Virus record (IMG/VR): IMGVR_UViG_3300020473_000020
Span: 1-64,000 of that record
From: a virus
DNA length: 64,000 nucleotides
Direction: 5' to 3' (one strand)
Shown: one piece after another, positions 42 to 58,675 of the stretch
Position numbering within the stretch: position 1 is the first letter of the stretch
How the letters are laid out: every line of letters starts with the position of its first letter
Translations under genes and position numbers: made by a program
Notes under the pieces: model-generated
Databases searched by the model: none
The model's input: the letters and a program-made list of their open reading frames with translations, nothing else
Told to the model about the DNA's origin: nothing

Positions 42-566
42 CTACGACGCCGTATAACCCGTTGGGTAGACGTCTTTCTTTCGCGCAGCGCGACAGGCTT
101 TCCATGCAGCTTTACCGCCTAAACGTAGCGCCCAGTAAGCAACAGTATTTAACCATTTCATACCGTTAACGTGGTCGCCGACAGCTTTAAAGACCATGTC
201 CCATACTTCCTGACGTCCCGATGCGTAAGGCCGTATGGCATCTTTAATGTAGGTTCCATCGGGCTGACGAACCCACAGATAATCGTAGTCGTAGCCGAAG
301 TCGTGTAGCAGGCTCTGTACTAGCAGTACACCGTTGGGGCTGATCAGCGAGCGAAAGATACGCGGTACGCTAGCCCCGTTGAAGCGATAGCCTTGTGGTA
401 CAACTATCACCGTGCCGTTAGGCAATGTAAAATGCCAGTCTTCTGCTAAATCCCACTCACGCGTTGAACCCCACCAAACTTTAATTGCTTGAAGCCATGA
501 TAAGCCCTTCGTCTCAATTAACACAGGCACTAGTTTAGGCATCGAAATGCTGGCTTTGTTTTCCAA
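42..566 (-). CDS. DUF1353-like phage protein
   Basis: About 174 aa. The central part has the DUF1353 pattern: a GASVPR motif, then an LHDFGYDY motif, then an Arg and a D..F segment near the C-terminus. DUF1353 proteins are common in tailed phages and their function is unknown. I place the start at a TTG at 566 because it follows AGGAG with 7-nt spacing; an in-frame GTG at 599 has no spaced ribosome site. It lies downstream of the nadV terminator and has two TTGTACAA palindromes upstream (about 628 and 680). Confidence 0.75.
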   Translation of the reverse strand: MENKASISMPKLVPVLIETKGLSWLQAIKVWWGSTREWDLAEDWHFTLPNGTVIVVPQGYRFNGASVPRIFRSLISPNGVLLVQSLLHDFGYDYDYLWVRQPDGTYIKDAIRPYASGRQEVWDMVFKAVGDHVNGMKWLNTVAYWALRLGGKAAWKACRAARKKDVYPTGYTAS

Positions 567-700
567 GGTGATGCTCCTATTGCTTTCGTGGAAAGACACC
601 CCTTACGAGGTAGCAACACAGACACACTTGTACAACTCATTCACATTTCAATGAGTAGTTTAGCAAAAAACGGGGAAGCTTGTACAAAGGATTAGACAAC

Positions 701-727
701 AAAAAGGGCACCTTAGTTGGTGCCCCT
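701..727 (-). terminator. Intrinsic terminator after nadV
   Basis: Read on the minus strand: GGGGCACC, a short loop, GGTGCCC and a T run. It ends the prs-nadV transcript. Confidence 0.8.
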
Positions 728-764
728 TAGCGAGTTAGGCTCAGTGCCTATTTAAGCTGTGGTA

Positions 765-2387
765 TTACAGCTGGCTTGCAATCTTAGCGCGGATCTCAGC
801 AAGTGTCGTTGTACGTAACAGCTTACCGTCTTCAAACACGACGCGAAGCAGTCCGCCTTGCTCTTGTTCTTCGGTGCAGTTATCAGTCATGACTAGCTCG
901 CCATTAACCTCGTCAACACGGATAAGCCCTTTAGCTGACTTCTTCTTTTTATCCGTTTTAGGGTCTTTGAAGATAGCCACTGATTCGCCTGCTTTGATAA
1001 CGTTAGTTGCTTTCACAGCTGAGCCGTGTGTATCACGTGTAACGTACTGGTAGCTGTAAGAACCGATACCTAGTACAACCTTAGAGCAGAAACCTTTATC
1101 CATCAGACGCTGTAAGATAGCACGCTGACGTTCTAGTGTGATAGCATCACCGTAGATTGCACCAATGTGCTCATCCAACATCTTGTAACCTTTATCGGTG
1201 ATAGTTCCGCCGAAAATATCCCACAGGCACTCGATAAGACCTTTTACTTCGCACTCCATAAGTACGGTTGACTGTTCTGCATTGCCAAGACCTTCTACCG
1301 TGTAGAGCTTGCCGTCGAAGCTAAATGCTTCTGAGCCAGCTTTAACAGCACGCATGTGTGCCATCGCAAAGGTCAGCTCGGTGCTCATGAAGATCTCAGG
1401 GTGTAATAGGTAACCCGTTAGGATCTTAACTGGACAGCCTGAGTCTGGTCGGATAATGACCGCGCCGTCACGAGCTAGAATTTCTTCTTTAAGCTCTGGT
1501 AAGTATTCAGTTACTAACTTCCAGAAATCCCATGTGTCGCTAACGACTGACAAGATGCCCGTAGGCGACTGTTCACACATTAGGTAGCGGAAGAACTCAA
1601 TCTCACCCTCAAGCAGCCATGAACAGGTCACTGAGTGCTCAGTTGCATCAACCGACGCACCGACTAACTCGGTCTCAACATTCGCACCGTAGAACTTCTC
1701 AGCAAATAGAACTGCTGGGATCGTGTCGGTACCGACTAGGCCACTTGCTAAGTGTCCAAAACCTGATGCCGCTGCTGCCGCGCGACCAAACATGCCACGG
1801 AATGAAAAGTCATGCCCTTGGAATGGTACAAAATCGAGTGGCACTCCCGTCTTCTCAGCATACTCGCGGAACACCTTAAAATAGGCCGTTGCAGTGGTTG
1901 CGCTTGTCTGAATACCCCAGTTCTCACAGCTCATAACCGTCTCGATCATGTTGGTAAGCCAAGCAAAATCGGGGTGAGTGTTAACAACGGTGATAGGCGG
2001 TACTTGGTAAGGCACTAACGTACCCTCTTCCAATGCTTTGATGCGAAGTGGTAGGTAGCCAAGGTCATGCAAATTACGTAGGTACTCAACGTTAACGCTG
2101 TAGCCCAGCATTGAATCAAGTATGCGTTTGTGTGCGCGGACAGCGGCTTCTTTCGGAGCTTTAAAGAATAGGCTCCACTCGTCCATCAAGTAGTCCATAA
2201 CGAAGTATTGAAGACCCACAAAAGCAACATGTGCATTGTCAGGTACGTTACTTAGCTTACCATTACGCGATGTATAGTTCGCATAAACGCTGGTTACCTG
2301 CGGGTGGTATGCTCTTAAATGAAATTCCTTATACACATCTTTAGCTAATGAGCTGGTTTGTACGGTTGTTGATGTAGTTAAATTCAT
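765..2387 (-). CDS. nadV: Nicotinamide phosphoribosyltransferase-like (NAMPT/NadV)
   Basis: 540 aa, slightly longer than human NAMPT. The catalytic landmarks are present: HDFSFRG (about 192-198), GTDT (about 219-222), SVDATEHS with the catalytic His at about 251, IIRPDSG (about 311-317), a YGDA segment, and a C-terminal IFKDP...KSAKG block. The known family reaction is nicotinamide + PRPP to NMN. It lies 84 bp downstream of prs on the same strand, so prs would supply its phosphoribosyl donor. In the recently described phage NARP1 pathway, homologues of this pair act instead on ADP-ribose (ADPR-PP + nicotinamide to NAD+). Sequence reading alone cannot separate the two, but no NMN adenylyltransferase is seen in this window. 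Annotation as a NAMPT-fold enzyme is secure; the substrate is not. Confidence 0.93.
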   Translation of the reverse strand: MNLTTSTTVQTSSLAKDVYKEFHLRAYHPQVTSVYANYTSRNGKLSNVPDNAHVAFVGLQYFVMDYLMDEWSLFFKAPKEAAVRAHKRILDSMLGYSVNVEYLRNLHDLGYLPLRIKALEEGTLVPYQVPPITVVNTHPDFAWLTNMIETVMSCENWGIQTSATTATAYFKVFREYAEKTGVPLDFVPFQGHDFSFRGMFGRAAAAASGFGHLASGLVGTDTIPAVLFAEKFYGANVETELVGASVDATEHSVTCSWLLEGEIEFFRYLMCEQSPTGILSVVSDTWDFWKLVTEYLPELKEEILARDGAVIIRPDSGCPVKILTGYLLHPEIFMSTELTFAMAHMRAVKAGSEAFSFDGKLYTVEGLGNAEQSTVLMECEVKGLIECLWDIFGGTITDKGYKMLDEHIGAIYGDAITLERQRAILQRLMDKGFCSKVVLGIGSYSYQYVTRDTHGSAVKATNVIKAGESVAIFKDPKTDKKKKSAKGLIRVDEVNGELVMTDNCTEEQEQGGLLRVVFEDGKLLRTTTLAEIRAKIASQL

Positions 2388-2471
2388 TGTCTTTGTCTCT
2401 TTTGTTCAAGTCTTTTTAACTGACTTCTTAATAAGCCAGCACTGGTTTTTGTTCTGTGGACTACGTGAGGC

Positions 2472-3347
2472 TTACAGCTCAACCACAGTCAGGCTTACGT
2501 CTGCACCATTGAGTGCTTGTAACTGTTCACGTGTCTTGAATGAATCAGTTGTGTAGATAGTATCAATTAAGCCCGCGAATACTGACATACCTTGAGAGAA
2601 AATGCCATGGGTAACGTACAAAGAAATCGACTGTGCACCACGGTTTTTCGCAACTTTTGCAAGTTCAAGATACGTACGGCCACCGTCACACAAGTCATCT
2701 ACGATAATGAGGTCTTTACCAGCCACATCGCCATTGATTTCAGTTCGGATTATGTCACCTGTTGCCATATCGCGAAGTTTCTCGCCTTGTACAACGCTTG
2801 TGCAGCCCATGTACTTTGCTAACGTGTGCGTTTTCTTCGCAGCACCTGCATCGGGAGCAACCAATGTGTAGTCGTTTGATTTCAACTTAGCTGTTAGCGT
2901 TGTACAACGGTTGATTACGTTAACCTGTGAAAGATTCACCACGTTATTCAGTAGGGCAGTGGTTACATCGCTGTGCGCATCGGCAATCACAACTTTCGTA
3001 AAGTTCATTGAGTTAATAAGGTCGGCCATGACGCGTACGCTAAGCGCTTCACCTTCGTTACATACACGGTCTTGGCGAGCGTATGGGAAATATAGAGCTT
3101 TTAGCTCTAAGTTTAATGTCCCACCAAAGATGTTGCGAAGGGCATTAACCGCTAGTAATAGTTTCATCACAGCCGATGAGTTAGTTAATCGCGTCTCGAT
3201 TCGTGCGCTGAACTGTGTCTCTGTGTCTAGTTCGTTTAGCGCGTCATCTACGATGCGGATGTTTTCTTCACCACCGTTAAAAGTGATTGTCTCAACTTGT
3301 AATTCGCGTTCTTCTTGGCATCCGCTTTGTTTAATAAAAATTCTCAT
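2472..3347 (-). CDS. prs: Ribose-phosphate pyrophosphokinase family (Prs or ADP-ribose kinase Adps)
   Basis: 291 aa, shorter than the roughly 315 aa of cellular PRPP synthetases. It has the ATP-site YARQDR (about 89-94), the metal-site DAHS (about 123-126) and a PRPP-loop VDDLCDGGRT (216-225). Cellular enzymes usually have D-x-I/V-D-T-G-G-T there, so DGGRT is a divergent loop. It is the first gene of the prs-nadV operon and is read from a sigma70-like promoter overlapping an NrtR-like operator. The likely role is making the activated ribose donor for NadV; the alternative is pyrophosphorylation of ADP-ribose as in NARP1. Confidence 0.9.
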   Translation of the reverse strand: MRIFIKQSGCQEERELQVETITFNGGEENIRIVDDALNELDTETQFSARIETRLTNSSAVMKLLLAVNALRNIFGGTLNLELKALYFPYARQDRVCNEGEALSVRVMADLINSMNFTKVVIADAHSDVTTALLNNVVNLSQVNVINRCTTLTAKLKSNDYTLVAPDAGAAKKTHTLAKYMGCTSVVQGEKLRDMATGDIIRTEINGDVAGKDLIIVDDLCDGGRTYLELAKVAKNRGAQSISLYVTHGIFSQGMSVFAGLIDTIYTTDSFKTREQLQALNGADVSLTVVEL

Positions 3348-3367
3348 TGTATCGTTTTCCGTCTTGT

Positions 3368-3386
3368 AAGTATCAGCTTGGTACTT
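3368..3386. promoter_or_regulatory. Putative NrtR operator O1
   Basis: 19-bp inverted repeat AAGTATCA-GCT-TGGTACTT, extended to GTA...TAC over 3366-3388. It begins immediately downstream of the prs -10 element, so a bound protein would cover the start site. It is one of three copies in this gap. Confidence 0.75.
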
Positions 3387-3415
3387 ACTTTAATGCAACA
3401 TTCGGATGCCGTCAA
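3387..3415 (-). promoter_or_regulatory. prs-nadV promoter
   Basis: Minus-strand TTGACG (3410-3415), 17-bp spacer, TAAAGT (3387-3392). The -10 abuts operator O1. Confidence 0.7.
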
Positions 3416-3431
3416 CCCCTTTTATAATAAA

Positions 3432-3450
3432 AAGTTTCAGGCTGGTACTT
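3432..3450. promoter_or_regulatory. Putative NrtR operator O2
   Basis: AAGTTTCA-GGC-TGGTACTT, same inverted-repeat family as O1. Its centre is 64 bp from O1 and 21 bp from O3, close to whole numbers of helical turns. Confidence 0.7.
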
Positions 3451-3452
3451 TA

Positions 3453-3471
3453 AAGTATCAGGTTGGTACTT
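3453..3471. promoter_or_regulatory. Putative NrtR operator O3
   Basis: AAGTATCA-GGT-TGGTACTT. It ends 3 bp before the -35 of the divergent regulator gene, consistent with autoregulation. Confidence 0.7.
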
Positions 3472-3474
3472 GTA

Positions 3475-3501
3475 TTGACTTTAGAATCAATTAACTATAA
3501 G
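3475..3501 (+). promoter_or_regulatory. Promoter of the Nudix regulator
   Basis: TTGACT (3475-3480), 15-bp spacer, TATAAG (3496-3501). The spacing is short, so the exact -10 is uncertain. Confidence 0.5.
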
Positions 3502-3542
3502 CTCTCACTATAATGAAAATTACAACAAGTAAAGAAGCCATC

Positions 3543-4256
3543 ATGACTGAACAAGAATATTTAGCGTCCTATAATGCAAAGGACTTCGACTCCCCACTAG
3601 TAACTGTCGACAGCGTACTGTTTACTATCCGCGAGGGTGACTTACATGTGCTTCTTGTAAAGCGCGCTAACCATCCTTTCATCAATCACTGGGGCTTAGC
3701 AGGTGGCTTTATTGATCTAGAGGCCGATGCCGAACTAGCTGATTGCGCTATACGTAAGCTTACTGAAAAGACAGGTATTGCGCCGCCATACTTAAAGCAG
3801 CTGTCTACCCGTGGTAATGCAAAGCGTGACCCGCGTGGTTACTCAGTCAGCACTGGCTTCTATGCACTCATCGACCACCAAGAGTGCACAGCATTAAATG
3901 CTGACGTCTCTGATGCGCAGTGGTTTAAGTTCACTGAGCTGCCTGAGCAGTTAGCCTTTGACCACCGTGAGATTATTGAATATGCCTACACGCGTCTGAC
4001 GAACGACGCCCGTTTCCGCTTAGTCGTTGCCCACGCATTGCCTAAGCAGTTTACCTTGGCACAGTTCCAAGCAGCTCACGAAGTGATTTTAGGTCAGCCG
4101 CTCTCTAAAGCATCATTCCGCCGCCGAATTGAACGCGCACAAGTACTGGAAAGCACAGGGGAGTTTTGCAAGAAGCACGCAAGACCCGCTGAATTGTTCC
4201 GCGTTAAACCCGAGCTAGATAATTATGAGTTCGACCAATCTATCGCGATGAACTAA
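3543..4256 (+). CDS. nrtR: NrtR-like Nudix transcriptional regulator of NAD metabolism
   Basis: 237 aa from the ATG at 3543. An ATG at 3513 lies almost at the promoter, and NrtR proteins typically start near the EYL..Y segment. Residues 20-140 form a Nudix domain; residues about 150-237 resemble the NrtR winged-helix domain. The Nudix box is degenerate: the REUxEE core reads RKLTEK, so two of three metal-binding Glu positions are Lys, which predicts a ligand sensor rather than a hydrolase. Known NrtR proteins bind ADP-ribose or NAD metabolites and repress NAD genes. It is divergent from prs-nadV with three inverted repeats between, so it most likely controls that operon and itself. Confidence 0.88.
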   Translation: MTEQEYLASYNAKDFDSPLVTVDSVLFTIREGDLHVLLVKRANHPFINHWGLAGGFIDLEADAELADCAIRKLTEKTGIAPPYLKQLSTRGNAKRDPRGYSVSTGFYALIDHQECTALNADVSDAQWFKFTELPEQLAFDHREIIEYAYTRLTNDARFRLVVAHALPKQFTLAQFQAAHEVILGQPLSKASFRRRIERAQVLESTGEFCKKHARPAELFRVKPELDNYEFDQSIAMN

Positions 4257-4260
4257 AAGA

Positions 4261-4286
4261 AAAGGCTACCAACGGTAGCCTTTTTA
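4261..4286. terminator. Bidirectional terminator
   Basis: AAGGCTACC-aac-GGTAGCCTTTTT with A and T runs on either side, between convergent genes ending at 4256 (+) and 4295 (-). Confidence 0.85.
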
Positions 4287-4294
4287 GTCAGTGC

Positions 4295-4537
4295 TTAGCA
4301 AAAACAAGCAGTGCCGTCTTGGCGGAGCATTCCCCTGTCCAAGCAGTACAGACACTTGTACTCGTCGACCTTAATGATCTTAAAGTCTTCTACTTGGTGC
4401 TGCTTGGCCAGCTTGGTGAGCTGCCTTTTCACAGCAAGAGCCGACTTAACCTCGGCAAAGTCCTTATGACCTGTCACGGTCTTAACACCGTCGATAGTTC
4501 GCGATGTGTACTCAAAGGTTGTAACAAAATTAGCCAT
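4295..4537 (-). CDS. Small protein with C-terminal Cys pairs
   Basis: 80 aa, not recognised. It has a basic helical middle (about 28-50) and a C-terminal CLYC...CFC set of cysteines that could bind zinc. Last gene of a tightly spaced minus-strand run that begins with the HD hydrolase. Confidence 0.65.
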   Translation of the reverse strand: MANFVTTFEYTSRTIDGVKTVTGHKDFAEVKSALAVKRQLTKLAKQHQVEDFKIIKVDEYKCLYCLDRGMLRQDGTACFC

Positions 4538-4540
4538 GCG

Positions 4541-4717
4541 TCATGAACCCCCGTCATTATCGAATGCCTGACACAGCTCCAAATAGAATGTACCTGCGCA
4601 AACGATGAATGTGAGCCATAACCAGCCCTCGACTGATCGTGATGTGTGCATGGCCACTGACCATGTGCTGGCCATGAGAACGAACACGCATAAGTACCAA
4701 GGTAATCTTTTCAGCAT
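4541..4717 (-). CDS. Small two-helix membrane protein
   Basis: 58 aa, ATG at 4717, TGA at 4541. Two hydrophobic segments (about 5-20 and 31-47) suggest a membrane hairpin. It fits exactly between genes ending at 4725 and starting at 4537, which supports it despite its size. Function unknown. Confidence 0.6.
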   Translation of the reverse strand: MLKRLPWYLCVFVLMASTWSVAMHTSRSVEGWLWLTFIVCAGTFYLELCQAFDNDGGS

Positions 4718-4724
4718 GCGTACC

Positions 4725-4976
4725 TCACTGTATGAAAGGGATATAGCGGATTGTGACCCTCTTTAGGTCAGCCGAGCTTTTAATGTCGTCGCGAATGTGT
4801 TTCTGAGCATCCTCAAGCGTCCTAAACGTGACATCATCAGTGCCACCGCCCTGATTACACGTCTTCCAGCTAAACCAGAATGGAAAGAATCTATAGGTAT
4901 ACTGCGGCGTATATCTGTAGCCCAGTTCGTCGCAGCCCTTAACTTTAGTTCTGTAGCGTGGTGCAAATGTCGGCAT
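4725..4976 (-). CDS. Hypothetical protein
   Basis: 83 aa, rich in aromatic and basic residues (YTYRFFPFWFSWK). No family recognised. The start follows the stop of the HD hydrolase gene by 1 nt, indicating co-translation. An overlapping frame at 4763-5011 was judged a shadow. Confidence 0.6.
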   Translation of the reverse strand: MPTFAPRYRTKVKGCDELGYRYTPQYTYRFFPFWFSWKTCNQGGGTDDVTFRTLEDAQKHIRDDIKSSADLKRVTIRYIPFIQ

Positions 4977-4977
4977 C

Positions 4978-5508
4978 CTATACCTCTAACAGTCGATCGA
5001 GTTCTAACCAAAGCTCGGATGGCTGACCCTCGCGGTACACGGCATCTTTGAAAGCAGCGTGCTCCCCACGGTATTTAGTCAGCATCTTGCTATTATCTTC
5101 ATGATGTGATTTACGTACATTCGCTAAACGGTCGCACAGCTTAACCACAAGCGTAATGAACTCACGCGGTAAGCTCGCGTCAAGCGCCTTTAGCTTGGCA
5201 TGTGTCTTTAGCTTGCGCTCGGCACGTGTTGCCCCTTCCTCATCGGAGATCCACTCAACCATTTGCGCGATGTCTTCCCCGAACAGGTGCGCAATATCCT
5301 CACGCGTCTTAGCTGTGTCCTCAACCACGTCATGAAGGTAGCCTAGGGCTTGTGCAAAATGGCCGTAGGGCTTCGCTAGGTAGGCTACAAGGTCTAAGTG
5401 GTAAACATAGTCATGCTCCCCATACTTTTGACCGTGGTGAGCGTCTACGGCGTATTCTCGTGCGGCTTGTACGAGCTTCGATGTGGGTTTAATTTTTGTT
5501 GTGAGCAT
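4978..5508 (-). CDS. HD-domain (p)ppGpp hydrolase-like protein (SpoT/MESH1 type)
   Basis: 176 aa, the size of single-domain MESH1/SAH enzymes. The order of motifs matches: A..YA..AHHGQKYG (14-30), YVYH with His37, LHDVVEDT with His59-Asp60 and Glu63-Asp64, and KLCDRLANV with Asp126. In the family these residues bind Mn2+ and hydrolyse the 3'-diphosphate of (p)ppGpp. There is no synthetase domain. The likely role is lowering alarmone levels in the infected cell; other nucleotide phosphohydrolase substrates are possible. Confidence 0.82.
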   Translation of the reverse strand: MLTTKIKPTSKLVQAAREYAVDAHHGQKYGEHDYVYHLDLVAYLAKPYGHFAQALGYLHDVVEDTAKTREDIAHLFGEDIAQMVEWISDEEGATRAERKLKTHAKLKALDASLPREFITLVVKLCDRLANVRKSHHEDNSKMLTKYRGEHAAFKDAVYREGQPSELWLELDRLLEV

Positions 5509-5560
5509 TCCCAGTTCCTTATTTATTTTATAATTTTCTTGGTTCTGAGCAGGCCAGTGC

Positions 5561-6109
5561 TTAACTGGCCTTTTCTAGAAGTACTTGTGGGAATGTCTCT
5601 TTTTCGTAGCCGTTTTCATCAGGGAAACGTCCCTCATGGTCTGCTAATACGATCTGAACATAGTCAGGCATTTCGATGCGTTCCTGATAGTACTCAGGGT
5701 ATTCCTGATAGAACACTTCATTTTGCACGACCATGGTGCTAAGAAGCTGCTCAGTACGTGCTAGTGGACGTAGTTGAACATCAACAGACATTTGGTCGAA
5801 GTCTAACGTTAATGGCTTTAATGAGTAACCTGAGCGCTCCCAGCTCGTAAGCACACCCTTGATGAACTCTGCACCCACGTTATGTGGCACAGGTAGGGTG
5901 ACAACGAGGTCAGGCAGACCCTTGTTCGCAACGCCAATAGAGTAGATGTGACCTTCGATAACGCCCATCACGGCAAAGCCATACTTCTCAATTAGGGCAC
6001 CGAAGCTAGCGCGCATTTCTTTTAGTCGGCGATGGACTTCTTCTTTACTTAGTACTTCTTCGTGCGTTGGATCTGGTGAACCCACACCATTGTGGTTTTC
6101 ATTCGACAT
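5561..6109 (-). CDS. DUF4262-like protein
   Basis: 182 aa. The segment YSIGVANKGLPDLVVTLPVP (about 56-75) is the signature of DUF4262, a family with no established function found in phages and bacteria. The N-terminal 45 residues are charged and probably helical. The upstream leader has GAGACAAAGAC directly before the ATG. Confidence 0.72.
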   Translation of the reverse strand: MSNENHNGVGSPDPTHEEVLSKEEVHRRLKEMRASFGALIEKYGFAVMGVIEGHIYSIGVANKGLPDLVVTLPVPHNVGAEFIKGVLTSWERSGYSLKPLTLDFDQMSVDVQLRPLARTEQLLSTMVVQNEVFYQEYPEYYQERIEMPDYVQIVLADHEGRFPDENGYEKETFPQVLLEKAS

Positions 6110-6126
6110 GTCTTTGTCTCCATTAG

Positions 6127-6399
6127 TTAGATTTTATTGATTGCCCGATAGCGCTTGGTCTCATTGTCGGTAATATCCGACCACCAACTCGGGTCTAGTG
6201 TCTCAGTAGTGCCATTTAAAAGCTGTGCCTTAACGTTGCCCATGAGTGAGTTCAACTCGCGGCTGCCAGCTGTAAAGGTTCGTTTATGTTGAAGGATTCG
6301 ACCACCCAGCGTCAGTACCTGCACACGGCGGTCATCGGCTGAGCGGGTCACTGACGGGACAGTGATTACATTAATCGCTTTGGTTAGACAGATATTCAT
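6127..6399 (-). CDS. Hypothetical protein
   Basis: 90 aa, no family recognised. Its first 29 bases overlap the end of the upstream gene (6371-7015), so it is probably translationally coupled to it. Confidence 0.65.
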   Translation of the reverse strand: MNICLTKAINVITVPSVTRSADDRRVQVLTLGGRILQHKRTFTAGSRELNSLMGNVKAQLLNGTTETLDPSWWSDITDNETKRYRAINKI

Positions 6400-7015
6400 T
6401 GTAGTGCAGTGTCTTTTGAGAAGCGCGAAGGTTTAGTAAGGCTTTTGGTAGTAAGCACTTTTGTAGGATCCCAATGCGGCGTGCAATGTCAGCCGAGTAG
6501 TGTGGTACTGACTCCCAGTTCTGACCGCCGTTGTAATAAGCCCAAATATCTCGCCACTTGCCCGTACCAACAATACGTTTACCGTCGTCTAGCACTTGCA
6601 TAGCATGACGTGCAGCAAAGGGCATATCATCCATTAAGCGCTGTGCAAGCATGTTCTTTTTAAAGCCACTGGTTACGTTATCGCGGCGTGCTGCATACGT
6701 TAGATTCACATGAAAAACCCCATACGATGGGTCTGTGTAATTTACGTTAACCTTGCCTGCAAGTGATTCTTTCCAAGCTATAGCGGCAAGTGAATAGCCG
6801 TAGCCTCTATCGAGTCCAAGATGGAACGAGTCTAAGAGTGTATGTATTTGACCACTATCAAGCTGGTGGACTTCCTTGCACGACGTAGCGGCCTCAGAGT
6901 TCGTGCTTAACGCAGCTAAGAAAAATAGGATGGCACACGGTACCTTTGCTTTGTGAACGGTACGTTTAAAACGCTGGCGTTGTACGTACTGTTCGCGACT
7001 CAATATAGCGCTCAT
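6371..7015 (-). CDS. Exported SLT-like peptidoglycan transglycosylase
   Basis: 214 aa. An N-terminal basic stretch is followed by a hydrophobic segment (about 25-43) that could be a signal peptide or anchor. Then AAIAWKESLAG gives a candidate catalytic Glu, followed by YGVFHVN, an order seen in lytic transglycosylase (SLT) domains; ..YYNGG.. occurs later, as in SLT proteins. Likely acts on peptidoglycan during lysis or entry. A promoter lies 40 bp upstream. Confidence 0.65.
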   Translation of the reverse strand: MSAILSREQYVQRQRFKRTVHKAKVPCAILFFLAALSTNSEAATSCKEVHQLDSGQIHTLLDSFHLGLDRGYGYSLAAIAWKESLAGKVNVNYTDPSYGVFHVNLTYAARRDNVTSGFKKNMLAQRLMDDMPFAARHAMQVLDDGKRIVGTGKWRDIWAYYNGGQNWESVPHYSADIARRIGILQKCLLPKALLNLRASQKTLHYNEYLSNQSD

Positions 7016-7054
7016 AGTCTCGATGTCTTGTAACTCAGTATCAATATGGCGCGC

Positions 7055-7083
7055 ATCTTAACGCACAAAGGACTGTAGCGCAA
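7055..7083 (-). promoter_or_regulatory. Sigma70-like promoter upstream of 6371-7015
   Basis: Minus-strand TTGCGC (7078-7083), 17-bp spacer beginning TACAG, TAAGAT (7055-7060), then a GATACTGAG leader. TTGTACAA palindromes lie upstream at about 7100 and 7125. Confidence 0.65.
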
Positions 7084-7107
7084 TTCTTTTTGATTTTCGT
7101 TGTACAA

Positions 7108-7138
7108 CAAAAAGGGCTGCACATTGTACAACCCTTTT
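7108..7138 (-). terminator. Intrinsic terminator with a TTGTACAA in the stem-loop
   Basis: Minus strand AAAGGGTTG, loop, CAGCCCTTTTT, just after the gene ending at 7163. Confidence 0.75.
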
Positions 7139-7162
7139 AAATCAAATCAATTTCGCTGTCGC

Positions 7163-8041
7163 TTAAAGATTGCTAGACCAGTCGAGTAAGGCGTCTTCGT
7201 TTTCATTAAAAAACTTGATAAGCTTATCGGCAGCGCCTTGGAAGTCTTTTTGTTTTAGCATGCGAGGTGCTTTAACCAGCTCTTTAGCGCGACGGCTGAA
7301 ACCTGATACGATTTCAAAGCGCATATCTTCACGGGCATTCGGGGCTTCTGGTGTTTGGTGGATCATGAAAATCATGCGGAATAACGCATTGAACTCAATG
7401 CCACGTAGATTCGGGTTTTCCACGATGTCATTAGACGTGTAGCGTACTGTTACAGTACGGCCGCCACCCAATGCTTTTTTGTTAAGCTCAACCGAGAAGT
7501 TTGCCTTTTCTTTTAGCGACTTCGGGATGTTATCTTCGATATAGGCCACAAACTCTTCATCTGTTTTGAACTCGACCTTTGCTTCGTCGATAGACTCTTC
7601 AACAAGCTTTAAGTAGGTGTCCACACCGCGCTCGACTTCAACAGTGATCAAGCCTTTCTTTTCTAGTGCTTGGTAGGCTGACATGATACGGCCATAGTCG
7701 ATACCAATGTTTTCACGACGGCGCGTAATGCTGTTTACAGAGACAACGTCGCCTTTTTCAGCTGCGGCTTTCGCGGCATCTAATAGCATCTTTTGAACTT
7801 TACCTTGCGGCTTAGCTTCACCTAGTACGGTATCTTGACCGATATAGACACGGATGTCCTCTTGTGAGCTTTTTTCTTCGTTTAATGAGGTTGGCTGTGC
7901 CTTACCAAATGATACACCGCCCATTGATTCCATCAATGACGTTGCGCGTGAGTGTGATGCAGGCTGGTGAGTGCCATTACTGTAATTAGTTGGTTCGCTG
8001 AATGTTTCCATTAGGCTACCAAGTCTTGAGGTCTGTCGCAT
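7163..8041 (-). CDS. Putative winged-helix DNA-binding protein
   Basis: 292 aa, no family recognised. Residues about 1-70 are polar and likely disordered. Residues about 83-145 (AAAEKGDVVSVNSITRRREN then YQALEKKGLITVEV) have the spacing of a winged-helix domain. The C-terminal part is mixed alpha/beta. A later ATG (residue 11) is an alternative start. Confidence 0.6.
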   Translation of the reverse strand: MRQTSRLGSLMETFSEPTNYSNGTHQPASHSRATSLMESMGGVSFGKAQPTSLNEEKSSQEDIRVYIGQDTVLGEAKPQGKVQKMLLDAAKAAAEKGDVVSVNSITRRRENIGIDYGRIMSAYQALEKKGLITVEVERGVDTYLKLVEESIDEAKVEFKTDEEFVAYIEDNIPKSLKEKANFSVELNKKALGGGRTVTVRYTSNDIVENPNLRGIEFNALFRMIFMIHQTPEAPNAREDMRFEIVSGFSRRAKELVKAPRMLKQKDFQGAADKLIKFFNENEDALLDWSSNL

Positions 8042-8130
8042 TCTCGCGTCTCCAAAGTCTCATTAAAAAAGTGCACGTACAACGTGCTGTAGGGCAACCA
8101 TTGTACAACACTTTTTCATACTTAGAAAAC

Positions 8131-8769
8131 TTAGGCTTCACCTAGTATCACAGTGCCTTCACTCTCGGCCTTTAGTGCTTCTTCACGAAGCCTCGCGTCG
8201 AGTTCTGCTATAAGGGCATCTATGTGCGCGACAGCATCTAAATAAACCTGATGTCGGTTCACCTCTTGGTTTATCTCGTCGAGGTATCGTTCGTAAACCT
8301 CTTGCGCCTCGTAAACTGTCATAGGTAACATGCCTGCCTCGTTACCGTCGCGGCCTTCCCATGCTGGTGCGAGTACCATTGCGCCAACATTAAGGCCATC
8401 AACGATGATGAGGTCAGCACGTGAGGTCTTCAAGGCAAGGCTGTCACTTAGCATGGCTTGCCAGCTTTCTGTAAGTGTTTCCCATGCTGTCTCATCGATC
8501 ACGATGGAGTCAAAGTGTTCTGGCTTTACGATACCCTGAACCTTTACGCGTGACTCAGGTACCTGCTCATCACCTTCCTTCTCGGCGTAGTACCAGTGCT
8601 CACCCACTTTGATGACGGGTTCAATTGCGCCTGTTGCTTCACGTACAAAATACGAGTACTCCACTCGGTGTGAAAAGCGTCGCAAGATTACTTTAAGTTC
8701 TGGTCGTTCTTCTAGGCGAGCAATGCGCTCGACCATCGCTGTTGCGCTGCCCCAATCTTGTAAACTCAT
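8131..8769 (-). CDS. Hypothetical protein with C-terminal coiled coil
   Basis: 212 aa, acidic, not recognised. The last 60 residues (EINQEVNRH ... LIAELDARLREEAL) are strongly helical and probably coiled coil. Its start lies 2 nt before the end of 8772-9077, suggesting an operon. Confidence 0.6.
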   Translation of the reverse strand: MSLQDWGSATAMVERIARLEERPELKVILRRFSHRVEYSYFVREATGAIEPVIKVGEHWYYAEKEGDEQVPESRVKVQGIVKPEHFDSIVIDETAWETLTESWQAMLSDSLALKTSRADLIIVDGLNVGAMVLAPAWEGRDGNEAGMLPMTVYEAQEVYERYLDEINQEVNRHQVYLDAVAHIDALIAELDARLREEALKAESEGTVILGEA

Positions 8770-14367: not shown

Positions 14368-14445
14368 TGGTCGGCCGCGAAGGATTTGAACCTTCGACCA
14401 ATTGGTTAAAAGCCAACTGCTCTAACCTGACTGAGCTAGCGGCCG
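14368..14445 (-). tRNA. tRNA-Lys(UUU)
   Basis: 78 nt with encoded CCA. Acceptor CGGCCGC/GCGGCCG, anticodon loop CTTTTAA, T-arm GAAGGTTCAAATCCTTC. Confidence 0.9.
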
Positions 14446-14459
14446 ACATAAAAAGAGGT

Positions 14460-14534
14460 TGGACTAGGCGAGGATTTGAACCTCGCGTCCCGACCCTTCA
14501 ACCGAGGGCGGCTCTCACACTGAGCTACTAGTCC
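14460..14534 (-). tRNA. tRNA of uncertain isotype
   Basis: 75 nt without encoded CCA. Acceptor GGACTAG/CTAGTCC and T-loop TTCAAAT are good, but the best anticodon loop is CGGTTGA, which lacks U33, and the D-loop is short. The anticodon would be GUU (Asn) if read normally. It may be unusual or decaying. Confidence 0.6.
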
Positions 14535-14540
14535 ACAAAG

Positions 14541-14616
14541 TGGCGGATCCTACTGGGCTTGAACCAGTGACCTCTGGATTAACAGTCCATTGCTCTACCA
14601 ACTGAGCTAAGGATCC
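14541..14616 (-). tRNA. tRNA-Asn(GUU), copy 1
   Basis: 76 nt with encoded CCA. Acceptor GGATCCT/AGGATCC, anticodon loop CTGTTAA. Confidence 0.9.
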
Positions 14617-14626
14617 TAAATAAGTT

Positions 14627-14703
14627 TGGGGTGGCTCACGGGACTCGAACCCGTGACCGACGCGATCACAACGCGTAGCTCTACCAACTGAGCTAGAGCC
14701 ACC
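14627..14703 (-). tRNA. tRNA-His(GUG)
   Basis: 77 nt with G-1 paired to C73 (the histidine identity pair), anticodon loop TTGTGAT and encoded CCA. Confidence 0.92.
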
Positions 14704-14716
14704 ATACCAAAGAAAG

Positions 14717-14792
14717 TGGCGGATCCTACTGGACTTGAACCAGTGGCCTGATCGTTAACAGCGAACTGCTCTACCAACTGAGCTAAGGATCC
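14717..14792 (-). tRNA. tRNA-Asn(GUU), copy 2
   Basis: 76 nt, same acceptor and T-arm as copy 1 but a different anticodon stem (GTTCG/CGATC). Anticodon loop CTGTTAA. Probably a duplication of copy 1. Confidence 0.88.
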
Positions 14793-14797
14793 TAAAT

Positions 14798-14874
14798 TGG
14801 TCGGTGTTGTAGGATTTGAACCTACGACCCCTTCGCCCCAAACGAAGTGCGCTACCAAACTGCGCTAAACACCG
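14798..14874 (-). tRNA. tRNA-Pro(UGG)
   Basis: 77 nt with encoded CCA; anticodon stem CTTCG/CGAAG with loop TTTGGGG. Confidence 0.92.
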
Positions 14875-14883
14875 ATTTTAAAT

Positions 14884-14958
14884 TGGTAGGGGCGGCAAGA
14901 CTCGAACTTGCGAATGCTGGAATCAAAATCCAGTGCCTTACCACTTGGCTACGCCCCT
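14884..14958 (-). tRNA. tRNA-Gln(UUG)
   Basis: 75 nt with encoded CCA; anticodon stem CTGGA/TCCAG with loop TTTTGAT. Confidence 0.92.
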
Positions 14959-56686: not shown

Positions 56687-58675
56687 TTAACCCCAGCGCA
56701 ATTGGTACTTCTCAGCGAAGTCCTTTGGTAGCATTATGGGTAGCCCCATTTCGCGCGCTTTTTTAAGTTTAGTCGTCGAGCCTTCTGGATTTAGCGTGAC
56801 AACCATTGTGGTTTTCTTTGTAACACTGCTGCCGACCTTACCGCCTTCTAATTCGATAATGTCTTGCAAATCAGCGTCTCTAAATTCAGTGAATACAATC
56901 ACTTCATTGTCTAGTACACCTGATGAAGCTGTCATGTCTGTTAACACCTTCACGCTCTTCACGTCTTCAAGGAATGACAGGAACTCTGACCAGCATTGTA
57001 CAAAGTTTTCGGCTGACTCTAGTGTAAAGTCTTCACCGTTAGCAATTCGTTGTACAATTGTGGCATTATAGGCCATCGGCTGCAAGTCTAATAGCTCTGG
57101 GACAGAGGTTAGCGCTGACTTAGACTTCGTTTCACCGAAACCACGTCCGAACACTGCTGAGGCTGCCATAAGCTTGTACAATGGCACGCCATTGTCCTGC
57201 ACGTTCTTGATTTGACCATAAATGCTTTCCGCAGAACGTTCTTTAATACCTTGGATGTCTACAAGCGCTCGTACGTCTAGCGATAGGAAATCTTTAAGCG
57301 TTGTGTAGCCTTCTTGGTAGATTTTCTTAACGGTACCAATCTTCATACCTGCCATGCCCATTGCTGTCAGGATGTGAGAGATTTGCTTGATGTCTGCTGT
57401 TTCTGAGGTCTTACCCGCAGGAAGAACTAGGTCTACCTCAGTCTTGCCCCACTCGTAGGCATCATCAGGGAACTGTGGCTCAGCACGCTCAAGTACCTCA
57501 TAGATGTCTGGGATAACATCACCTGAGCGAAGTAATACAACTTTCGCACCAATGCCGATACCATCACGGATGATTGCACGGGCGTTTTCACCATGACACC
57601 AGTTATAAGTCGCACCACCGATAACAACAGGTTTGATTTTGATGCGCGGGATCCAAACATTGTAACGTGATAGGTTCCACTCGATGTACTCAACCTCAGT
57701 CTCGGCCATCTGTTCAGGCAATGGCATCTTGAAGGCTGCCATGTGTGTAGGGTTACCACTTGTGATCAGCTCGTGCTTAACATCGGCTGTAACGATGAGG
57801 CCGTCAATTTGGAACGGGCTATTTTCGCGGCGGTCGGCATAGATTTCTTCAAGGTCGGCCATGAAGTGTTCTTTGGTCTCATCGGTTACTGCAACCGTTG
57901 CATACCAAGCCATGTGGAAGCCACGCTGTTCAAGCTTATATAATTGCGTAGAAGGTAGTCCACCTTCGCTTGGGAAGCCAAACGCAATAAAATTAAGTAG
58001 GCTCTTATTAGCGTCGGCTTCTAGCTTGCCCGCAAGACCTGTTGCTACGTGACGAGCTGACGTGCGTTTACCATCAGTGAAATGTGAGTCAGGAATAGCT
58101 GCAAAGCTTTCTTCTGATATGATGACTTCGCCTTTAACCACATCGCCAACGTTCAATGGTGGTAGCTGCATGAACGGCATCAAGTGATCCCAGTTGGTAC
58201 CCTCGGCACCGTCACCACGGCTTGCTAGGTGGTGGCCATTTTCGTCACGCCAGTAAGTACCGCTCAAACCATCAAGTTTATCACCTAGGGTGAAGGTCAC
58301 TTCACCGCCTTTAGGAATAAATTTATTTGTGAAGCGTTCAAGCTCCTTTGTACGTGCTTTGATTTTATCGGCACTACCGCTGTAGTATGGCAGTTTAACT
58401 GTCTCACCTGTTGCCACAGCGCCCGTATGGTGGTCTAGTGCGATACCTTGGCTAACTGATAGCTCGCGTAGTAAGTCGTATGTGCCATCGGCAAGGATTG
58501 GCTCAGAAGTATTGTAATAGAAGTCATCTAGGGTGGTGATGATTTTAAGTAGGTCATCTTTAGGCGTAGACGCAACCGTGTCAGTTGGATTGCCTATGAA
58601 AACGTTTAGCCAGTCAGCCACTTCTGGACTGTCAGCAAGTAATGTTTTCGCTAATGGCGAAATCTTATCAGTCAT
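56687..58675 (-). CDS. ligA: NAD-dependent DNA ligase
   Basis: 662 aa from ATG 58675. Nucleotidyltransferase motif I KLDG with Lys133, motif-like LSRYNVWIPRIKIKPVVIGG into the OB domain, helix-hairpin-helix segments (about 445-545) and a C-terminal BRCT domain (about 585-662). The four-Cys zinc finger of cellular LigA is absent. It seals nicks using NAD+. It is read from a strong promoter (58760-58787). The phage also carries an NAD salvage cassette. Confidence 0.92.
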   Translation of the reverse strand: MTDKISPLAKTLLADSPEVADWLNVFIGNPTDTVASTPKDDLLKIITTLDDFYYNTSEPILADGTYDLLRELSVSQGIALDHHTGAVATGETVKLPYYSGSADKIKARTKELERFTNKFIPKGGEVTFTLGDKLDGLSGTYWRDENGHHLASRGDGAEGTNWDHLMPFMQLPPLNVGDVVKGEVIISEESFAAIPDSHFTDGKRTSARHVATGLAGKLEADANKSLLNFIAFGFPSEGGLPSTQLYKLEQRGFHMAWYATVAVTDETKEHFMADLEEIYADRRENSPFQIDGLIVTADVKHELITSGNPTHMAAFKMPLPEQMAETEVEYIEWNLSRYNVWIPRIKIKPVVIGGATYNWCHGENARAIIRDGIGIGAKVVLLRSGDVIPDIYEVLERAEPQFPDDAYEWGKTEVDLVLPAGKTSETADIKQISHILTAMGMAGMKIGTVKKIYQEGYTTLKDFLSLDVRALVDIQGIKERSAESIYGQIKNVQDNGVPLYKLMAASAVFGRGFGETKSKSALTSVPELLDLQPMAYNATIVQRIANGEDFTLESAENFVQCWSEFLSFLEDVKSVKVLTDMTASSGVLDNEVIVFTEFRDADLQDIIELEGGKVGSSVTKKTTMVVTLNPEGSTTKLKKAREMGLPIMLPKDFAEKYQLRWG

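What the first reader, a model, noticed from the sequence alone, without database searches (positions are those of the whole stretch)
765..4256. Phage NAD cassette: prs and nadV divergent from an NrtR-like regulator
The sequence shows PRPP-synthetase and NAMPT family enzymes in one operon facing an NrtR-like gene. A published phage pathway (NARP1) uses homologues of this pair to rebuild NAD+ from ADP-ribose and nicotinamide after NAD+-depleting defences; the short Prs with a divergent DGGRT loop and the absence of an NMN adenylyltransferase here are compatible with that. The classical PRPP to NMN route is the alternative. A dedicated regulator in the same cassette is the less familiar part.
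Basis: partly seen in the sequence, partly recalled or inferred. Interest (0 to 1): 0.8.

Follow-up and report, generated by a model that had tools for sequence, protein, structure and literature searches.

The report
Sensor-controlled phage NAD+ repair cassette
A bacterial virus carries two enzymes that probably rebuild the essential molecule NAD+ after a host defence destroys it, next to a repressor that very probably senses the debris of that destruction (ADP-ribose), so the repair genes would stay on only when needed.

Summary
Window 765-4256 of a 138-kb T4-like phage record holds adps/prs and nadV/namat on the minus strand, divergent from an NrtR regulator. The NARP1 reading is supported. 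The 'NadV' has the published Namat signature (GSYSYQYVTRD), scores 434 bits against phage Namat structures versus 183 against mammalian Nampt, and falls in the Namat clade with ICP1. No NMN adenylyltransferase is in the record. The regulator is the new part. It is an SoNrtR-type repressor with a dead Nudix box that keeps all six ADP-ribose contacts of Shewanella NrtR. Three near-identical 19-bp palindromes occur in the divergent intergenic region and nowhere else in the record, and terminators bound the cassette. Nineteen of 22 bacterial relatives of this NrtR also sit beside Adps+Namat (Shewanella, Acinetobacter, Serratia, an alphaproteobacterial MAG). None of the 160 nearest viral Adps/Namat loci examined has one. 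Best explanation: a NARP1 counter-defence module under a repressor released by ADP-ribose, which is both NARP1's substrate and the waste of NADase defences. Enzyme specificity and ADP-ribose release are inferred, not shown. New variant of a known kind: enzymes and regulator type are known separately; their combination in a phage appears undescribed.

The parts
765..2387 (-). namat (nadV-like): nicotinamide ADP-ribose transferase, 540 aa, SCH motif GSYSYQYVTRD (residues 442-452)
2472..3347 (-). adps (prs-like): predicted ADP-ribose pyrophosphate synthetase, 291 aa, loop DDLCDGGRT; 84 bp upstream of namat, no terminator between
3513..4256 (+). nrtR: degenerate Nudix domain + NrtR winged helix; likely start ATG 3543; six SoNrtR ADP-ribose contacts kept (Y20 F25 R51 N53 K86 R108)
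3368..3386 (.). operator-like palindrome 1, AAGTATC-AGCTT-GGTACTT, directly downstream of the putative adps -10
3432..3450 (.). operator-like palindrome 2, AAGTTTC-AGGCT-GGTACTT
3453..3471 (.). operator-like palindrome 3, AAGTATC-AGGTT-GGTACTT, directly upstream of a TTGACT/TATAAG element before nrtR
3387..3415 (-). putative sigma-70-like adps promoter (TTGACG-17-TAAAGT); weak, scan not above shuffles
703..728 (-). intrinsic-terminator-like hairpin after namat
4260..4284 (.). terminator-like hairpin directly after nrtR (T run on + strand visible in sequence)

Best explanation
A NARP1 counter-defence module with its own ADP-ribose-sensing repressor. Adps pyrophosphorylates ADP-ribose to ADPR-PP. 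Namat joins nicotinamide to ADPR-PP, giving NAD+ in two steps from the two products of NAD+ hydrolysis. NrtR binds the three palindromes between the divergent genes and holds down adps-namat (and probably itself). When a host NADase defence (SIR2, TIR or similar) turns NAD+ into ADP-ribose and nicotinamide, ADP-ribose binds the dead Nudix domain and releases NrtR. The pathway runs, uses up the inducer, and shuts off. Because repressor must be made after injection, in a lytic infection this probably acts as 'on at first, then switched off unless ADP-ribose is present'. Shown by sequence: gene layout, Namat signature and placement, conserved ligand residues, repeated palindromes. Inferred: enzyme specificity of these two proteins, repressor binding, ADP-ribose release, benefit during infection.
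For: Namat: SCH motif matches the published consensus GSX-phi-X-phi-X-phi-TRD and all catalytic-core positions are kept (PMC12774641). Best PDB matches are phage Namat: 9w5w 434 bits (the 311-residue stretch taken from it is identical to SPbetaL1), against 183 for Nampt. A control phage NadV shows the reverse, 376 against 226. Tree: Namat clade 98, and with ICP1/Slickus 100. Motif tracks adps neighbours, 114/127 v 4/52. No NMNAT. Regulator: 48% identical to SoNrtR over full length; all six ADP-ribose contacts listed in PMC4666351 are kept and the Nudix box is broken (RKLTEKT), whereas other viral NrtR-like proteins keep the active-type glutamate. ADP-ribose suppresses DNA binding of SoNrtR (PMC4666351). 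Tree: with Shewanella/Serratia NrtR 97/96. 19/22 bacterial relatives lie beside Adps+Namat. Operators: three near-identical copies, 0.04 expected, none elsewhere at <=4 mismatches; same 7-5-7 geometry upstream of bacterial adps. Rationale: ICP1 NrsAB (Adps/Namat) costs fitness when the NADase defence is absent (PMC11559045).
Against: No biochemistry on these proteins. Adps loop is not diagnostic and the Adps tree has long branches. The Namat SCL position is Lys44-Leu45 without the usual fourth-position stacking residue. Namat of SPbetaL1 also makes NMN from PRPP (PMC12774641), so dual use is possible. The phage half-site AAGTAYC differs from bacterial TAGTGKC. The putative adps promoter is weak. 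A phage-made repressor is absent at injection. The host is unknown.
Confidence: 0.72

Rival explanations
1. Classical nicotinamide salvage: Prs makes PRPP, NadV makes NMN, and a host NMN adenylyltransferase finishes NAD+.
For: Both proteins are homologous to Prs and Nampt. Namat keeps PRPP activity in vitro (PMC12774641). Bacterial genomes with this NrtR encode PF01467 proteins, so a host could supply the last step.
Against: Namat SCH signature, tree and structure scores. All Nampt-type controls have G-G-x-L at the same place. No NMNAT on the record.
Confidence: 0.1
2. NARP1 enzymes are real, but the NrtR answers to another signal (NAD+, another nucleotide, cyclic ADP-ribose or ADPR-1P) or is not a repressor of this operon.
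For: NrtR-family ligands vary: NdnR responds to NAD and AraR to arabinose (PMC4666351). In Moraxella, Methylomonas, Providencia and a Pseudomonadales MAG close NrtR relatives lie beside an SPFH gene instead.
Against: All six ADP-ribose contacts of SoNrtR are conserved. The palindromes are confined to the nrtR/adps intergenic region.
Confidence: 0.13
3. The whole nrtR-adps-namat operon was captured intact from a bacterium and is incidental metabolic cargo.
For: The gene trio exists in bacteria, divergent as here in Serratia. The NrtR is of bacterial type.
Against: Namat belongs to a phage lineage: 62% to Slickus01 and 100-supported with ICP1, not with the NrtR-linked bacterial Namats. So the module looks assembled from two sources. 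GC matches the genome (46.1% v 46.5%).
Confidence: 0.08
4. The regulator acts in trans on the host's own NrtR regulon to raise host NAD+ salvage.
For: Related NrtR proteins and operators occur in Shewanella-like bacteria.
Against: The phage half-sites (AAGTAYC) differ from the bacterial ones (TAGTGKC), and the operators sit in cis.
Confidence: 0.04

Closest known systems
NARP1 (Adps + Namat) of phages SPbetaL1, Bas63, DyoEdafos; NrsAB of ICP1
   Same: Adjacent Adps- and Namat-type genes, Namat selectivity motif, no NMNAT needed; Namat clusters with ICP1
   Different: No dedicated regulator lies in the ICP1, SPbetaL1, DyoEdafos or Bas62 loci examined, nor is one mentioned in the papers read
SoNrtR of Shewanella oneidensis (PDB 3gz5, 3gz6, 3gz8)
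   Same: 48% identity over full length, same ADP-ribose contacts, dead Nudix box; in Shewanella relatives palindromic sites near a prs/nadV-type pair
   Different: Bacterial and chromosomal; half-site TAGTGTC instead of AAGTAYC
Acinetobacter prs-nadV-nrtR operon (NCBIfam NF050029, 'ADPR responsive transcriptional repressor NtrR')
   Same: Same three gene families; its NadV also carries a Namat motif, GSFTYNYLTRD
   Different: Co-directional chromosomal operon; phage NrtR is below that model's equivalog cut-off, as are Shewanella and Serratia NrtR
NARP2 and jumbo-phage NadV loci with NadM-Nudix or active-box NrtR-like genes
   Same: Phage NAD+ salvage beside a Nudix-containing gene
   Different: Nampt-type NadV without adps; the Nudix-containing regulators keep catalytic-type residues

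Membership tests
NARP1 | Adps-like gene beside a Namat-like gene | tested here: met
NARP1 | Namat SCH motif GSX-phi-X-phi-X-phi-TRD | tested here: met
   GSYSYQYVTRD, residues 442-452 (PMC12774641)
NARP1 | Namat SCL adenine-stacking residue | tested here: inconclusive
   Lys44 at the third position is allowed, but the following residue is Leu45
NARP1 | Conserved NAM/ribose core residues | tested here: met
   D17 Y19 F194 R197 D221 R313 D315 all kept
NARP1 | Namat groups with Namat, not Nampt | tested here: met
NARP1 | Adps distinct from cellular Prs | tested here: inconclusive
   CDGGRT loop shared with Bas62 and (as CDGGGT) DyoEdafos, but long branches and exceptions
NARP1 | ADP-ribose + ATP + nicotinamide to NAD+ | not testable with these tools
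   needs purified enzymes
NARP1 | Protects against NAD+-depleting defence | not testable with these tools
   needs infection or toxicity assays
NrtR (SoNrtR type) | Nudix-like domain + NrtR winged helix | tested here: met
   PF00293 53 bits, PF21906 63.9 bits, both above cut-off
NrtR (SoNrtR type) | Impaired Nudix catalytic box | tested here: met
   RKLTEKT in place of REUxEEx
NrtR (SoNrtR type) | ADP-ribose contact residues | tested here: met
   Y, F, R, N, K, R all identical to SoNrtR
NrtR (SoNrtR type) | Palindromic operators by NAD genes | tested here: met
   three sites; binding itself not tested
NF050029 NtrR equivalog (Acinetobacter) | Score at or above 400 bits | tested here: not met
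   235.9 bits; Shewanella 237 also fails, so no claim of orthology to Acinetobacter NtrR

The most novel reading that the evidence does not exclude
The phage runs a feedback circuit in which the direct product of a host immune NADase (ADP-ribose) induces, through a phage-encoded sensor, the enzymes that consume that product and restore NAD+: a counter-defence induced by the defence reaction itself. It was assembled by joining a bacterial ADP-ribose sensor to a phage NARP1 pair. The same pairing in Shewanella and Acinetobacter would recast their NrtR-prs-nadV operons as ADP-ribose-induced NARP1.
Probability: 0.6. Interest if true: 0.78.

Novelty: new variant of a known kind. Interest (0 to 1): 0.66.

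Why it matters
Phage anti-defence genes are usually thought of as simply expressed early in infection. Here the anti-defence pathway seems to carry its own sensor for the molecule that the defence produces. That would explain how a phage avoids the measured fitness cost of NARP1 in hosts without a NADase defence (ICP1 NrsAB, PMC11559045). It also offers a simple reason why Shewanella NrtR senses ADP-ribose: ADP-ribose would be the substrate of the enzymes it controls. Both ideas can be tested with a few purified proteins, one DNA fragment and a reporter. The phage also encodes an NAD+-dependent DNA ligase (window 56687-58675), so its own replication would suffer directly from NAD+ loss.

Tried and rejected
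(1) CDGG loop, or KxR[DN]xx[TS]G, as a strict Adps signature: DDxxDG-type loop 94/115, KxR motif 80/115, with exceptions including ICP1 and SPbetaL1 for the loop; not used as proof. (2) 'Acinetobacter phage MD-2021a' as a second phage with the trio: flanks (fepC, emrB) and gene order equal Acinetobacter chromosomes, so judged misfiled bacterial contigs. (3) Single-sequence NrtR scan of viral contigs gave nothing; alignment scans found only distant active-box Nudix/NrtR or NadM. (4) Other ADP-ribose genes in the record (macro, NADAR, second Nudix): none; the RyR search had no positive control. (5) Integrase and HTH_3 repressor: none, so no sign of lysogeny. (6) Close phage relative for synteny: Slickus01 matches only 10 of 139 ORFs. 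(7) Key papers (Osterman 2024; Rodionov 2008; Huang 2009) are not held, so their content rests on citing papers or memory. (8) No paper found that links NrtR with NARP1. A report on Acinetobacter NtrR was not found in the library, so the bacterial half may already be published. (9) No structure was predicted: a 48%-identical solved structure exists for NrtR, and a fold would not separate Namat from Nampt.
Full report
Observation. They match NAMPT, Prs and NrtR families. The record is a 138,059-bp virus contig without end repeats, possibly incomplete. It has a portal related to the portal vertex protein of Rhizobium phages, a head protease, a terminase and an NAD+-dependent DNA ligase. No integrase or HTH_3 repressor was found.

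Which enzymes? Lan et al. (PMC12774641) solved SPbetaL1 Namat and gave a motif that separates Namat (ADPR-PP donor) from Nampt (PRPP donor). The window protein has GSYSYQYVTRD, a full match, and keeps the catalytic-core residues. Mammalian Nampt and three phage NadV controls have G-G-x-L at that place. By sequence it scores 434 bits to the Namat structure 9w5w and 183 to Nampt; a control jumbo-phage NadV does the reverse, 376 to Nampt and 226 to Namat. The tree puts it in the Namat clade (support 98), within a 100-supported group holding ICP1 and Slickus. Across fetched loci the motif occurs in 114 of 127 NadV-like proteins that have an adps neighbour and 4 of 52 without. One of those four is the window itself; the other three loci showed no adps in the DNA held. 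One clamp position (SCL) is Lys-Leu rather than the usual stacking residue, so that part is inconclusive.

Adps. It is clearly Prs-like (TIGR01251 143 bits) with a CDGGRT loop in place of the DTGGT of E. coli Prs. The loop is shared by Bas62, and as CDGGGT by DyoEdafos, but ICP1 has CDGA and SPbetaL1 SSFGG. The tree is poorly resolved with long branches. I treat Adps identity as inferred mainly from its Namat partner.

NMNAT. None in the record. This is weak evidence, because a host could supply the step.

Regulator. It is 48% identical to Shewanella oneidensis NrtR (3gz5) over full length. PMC4666351 lists SoNrtR residues that touch ADP-ribose: Tyr10, Phe15, Arg41, Asn43, Lys76, Arg98. The phage has the same residue at all six. 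Lys76/Lys86 replaces a catalytic glutamate, so the Nudix site should be dead. Other viral NrtR-like proteins examined (nine from IMG/VR, phage G and a jumbo phage) keep the glutamate and lack Asn43. Trees group the window NrtR with Shewanella, Serratia and SPFH-linked bacterial regulators (97/96) and away from the other viral ones.

Operators. Three copies of AAGTWTC-N5-GGTACTT lie in the 165-bp divergent region. Expected number 0.04. No other copy exists in 138 kb at up to four mismatches. Bacterial adps operons have palindromes of the same 7-5-7 form: TAGTGTC-N5-GACACTA in Shewanella, TAGTGGC-N5-GCCACTA in Acinetobacter. TAGTGTC palindromes also occur upstream of SPFH operons divergent from related NrtR genes. 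The outer phage sites are 85 bp apart; the Shewanella pairs are 86 bp apart in three species. This may be coincidence. Per locus, the 7-5-7 palindrome counts alone are only mildly above shuffles; the strength lies in the repeated copies.

Linkage. Of 22 bacterial loci with this NrtR type, 19 have Adps and a motif-positive Namat next to it (12 Acinetobacter, 5 Shewanella, 1 Serratia, 1 alphaproteobacterial MAG). The sample is taxonomically clumped. The others sit near NAD synthetase (L030), macro/ADP-ribosylglycohydrolase genes (L040) and an SPFH pair (L015). In phages the combination is rare. 1,476 phage records have an Adps/Prs-like match and 1,907 a Namat/NadV-like match, but only 23 have an NrtR/Nudix-like match. 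The only two records in which such an NrtR sits beside adps and/or namat are contigs that look chromosomal. None of the 80 nearest viral Namat loci and 80 nearest viral Adps loci has a comparable regulator in the flanks. These scans are pattern-limited, so 'unique' is not claimed.

Origin. Namat is 62% identical to Slickus01, while other shared genes are at most about 33%, so Namat probably moved between phages. NrtR is of bacterial type. GC shows no contrast (46.1% against 46.5%). The cassette ends in terminator-like hairpins on both sides. It looks like a self-contained module built from two sources.

Mechanism. ADP-ribose suppresses DNA binding of SoNrtR (PMC4666351, citing Rodionov 2008). 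In P. aeruginosa an NAD-degrading toxin derepresses an NrtR-controlled NAD pathway (PMC11535050). NARP1 uses ADP-ribose and nicotinamide (PMC12774641). ICP1 NrsAB costs fitness when the NADase defence is absent (PMC11559045). Together these make an ADP-ribose-induced NARP1 the most economical reading. A caveat is timing: the repressor is absent at injection, so in a lytic cycle it would mostly switch the operon off when ADP-ribose stays low.

Novelty. NARP1 in phages and bacteria is known, as are ADP-ribose-responsive NrtR proteins. I found no paper joining the two, although NCBIfam already names the Acinetobacter protein an ADPR-responsive repressor, so the bacterial half may be published in a paper not held here.

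Noticed in passing
window 56687-58675 (-): NAD+-dependent DNA ligase (PHROG 3869, 333 bits): the phage's own replication would need NAD+.
   Followed up: partly
L002, L017-L025, L027-L029; L011-L014, L031; L016; L026: Bacterial NrtR-adps-namat operons whose 'NadV' carries the Namat motif; Shewanella and Acinetobacter prs-nadV, usually described as nicotinamide salvage, look like NARP1.
   Followed up: partly
L313, L314, L315, L316, L015: Close NrtR relatives divergent from an SPFH-domain gene plus a gene with NAD-kinase-like motifs (NDLFxGPKTHTSARY, GSTGW; my reading, no Pfam hit); palindromes like the Shewanella operator precede some of them. An uncharacterised NrtR-linked pair.
   Followed up: partly
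L040 (Pleionea) 544-8366: NrtR flanked by KptA, a macro domain and an ADP-ribosylglycohydrolase: an ADP-ribose metabolism cluster.
   Followed up: partly
L041-L051, L293: Viral NrtR-like proteins with intact Nudix residues; some (L043, L045-L047, L049) lie beside Nampt-type nadV. Possibly a second, enzymatically active kind of phage regulator.
   Followed up: partly
window 4978-5508 (-): Short RelA/SpoT-like HD domain gene (TIGR00691 52.8 bits, Pfam HD_4), possible stand-alone ppGpp hydrolase.
   Followed up: no
CAKLQF020000015.1, CAKLQH020000024.1: Records labelled 'Acinetobacter phage MD-2021a' appear to be Acinetobacter chromosome contigs.
   Followed up: partly
window 14368-14958 (-): Cluster of seven tRNA genes with three tRNA-Asn(GTT).
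   Followed up: no
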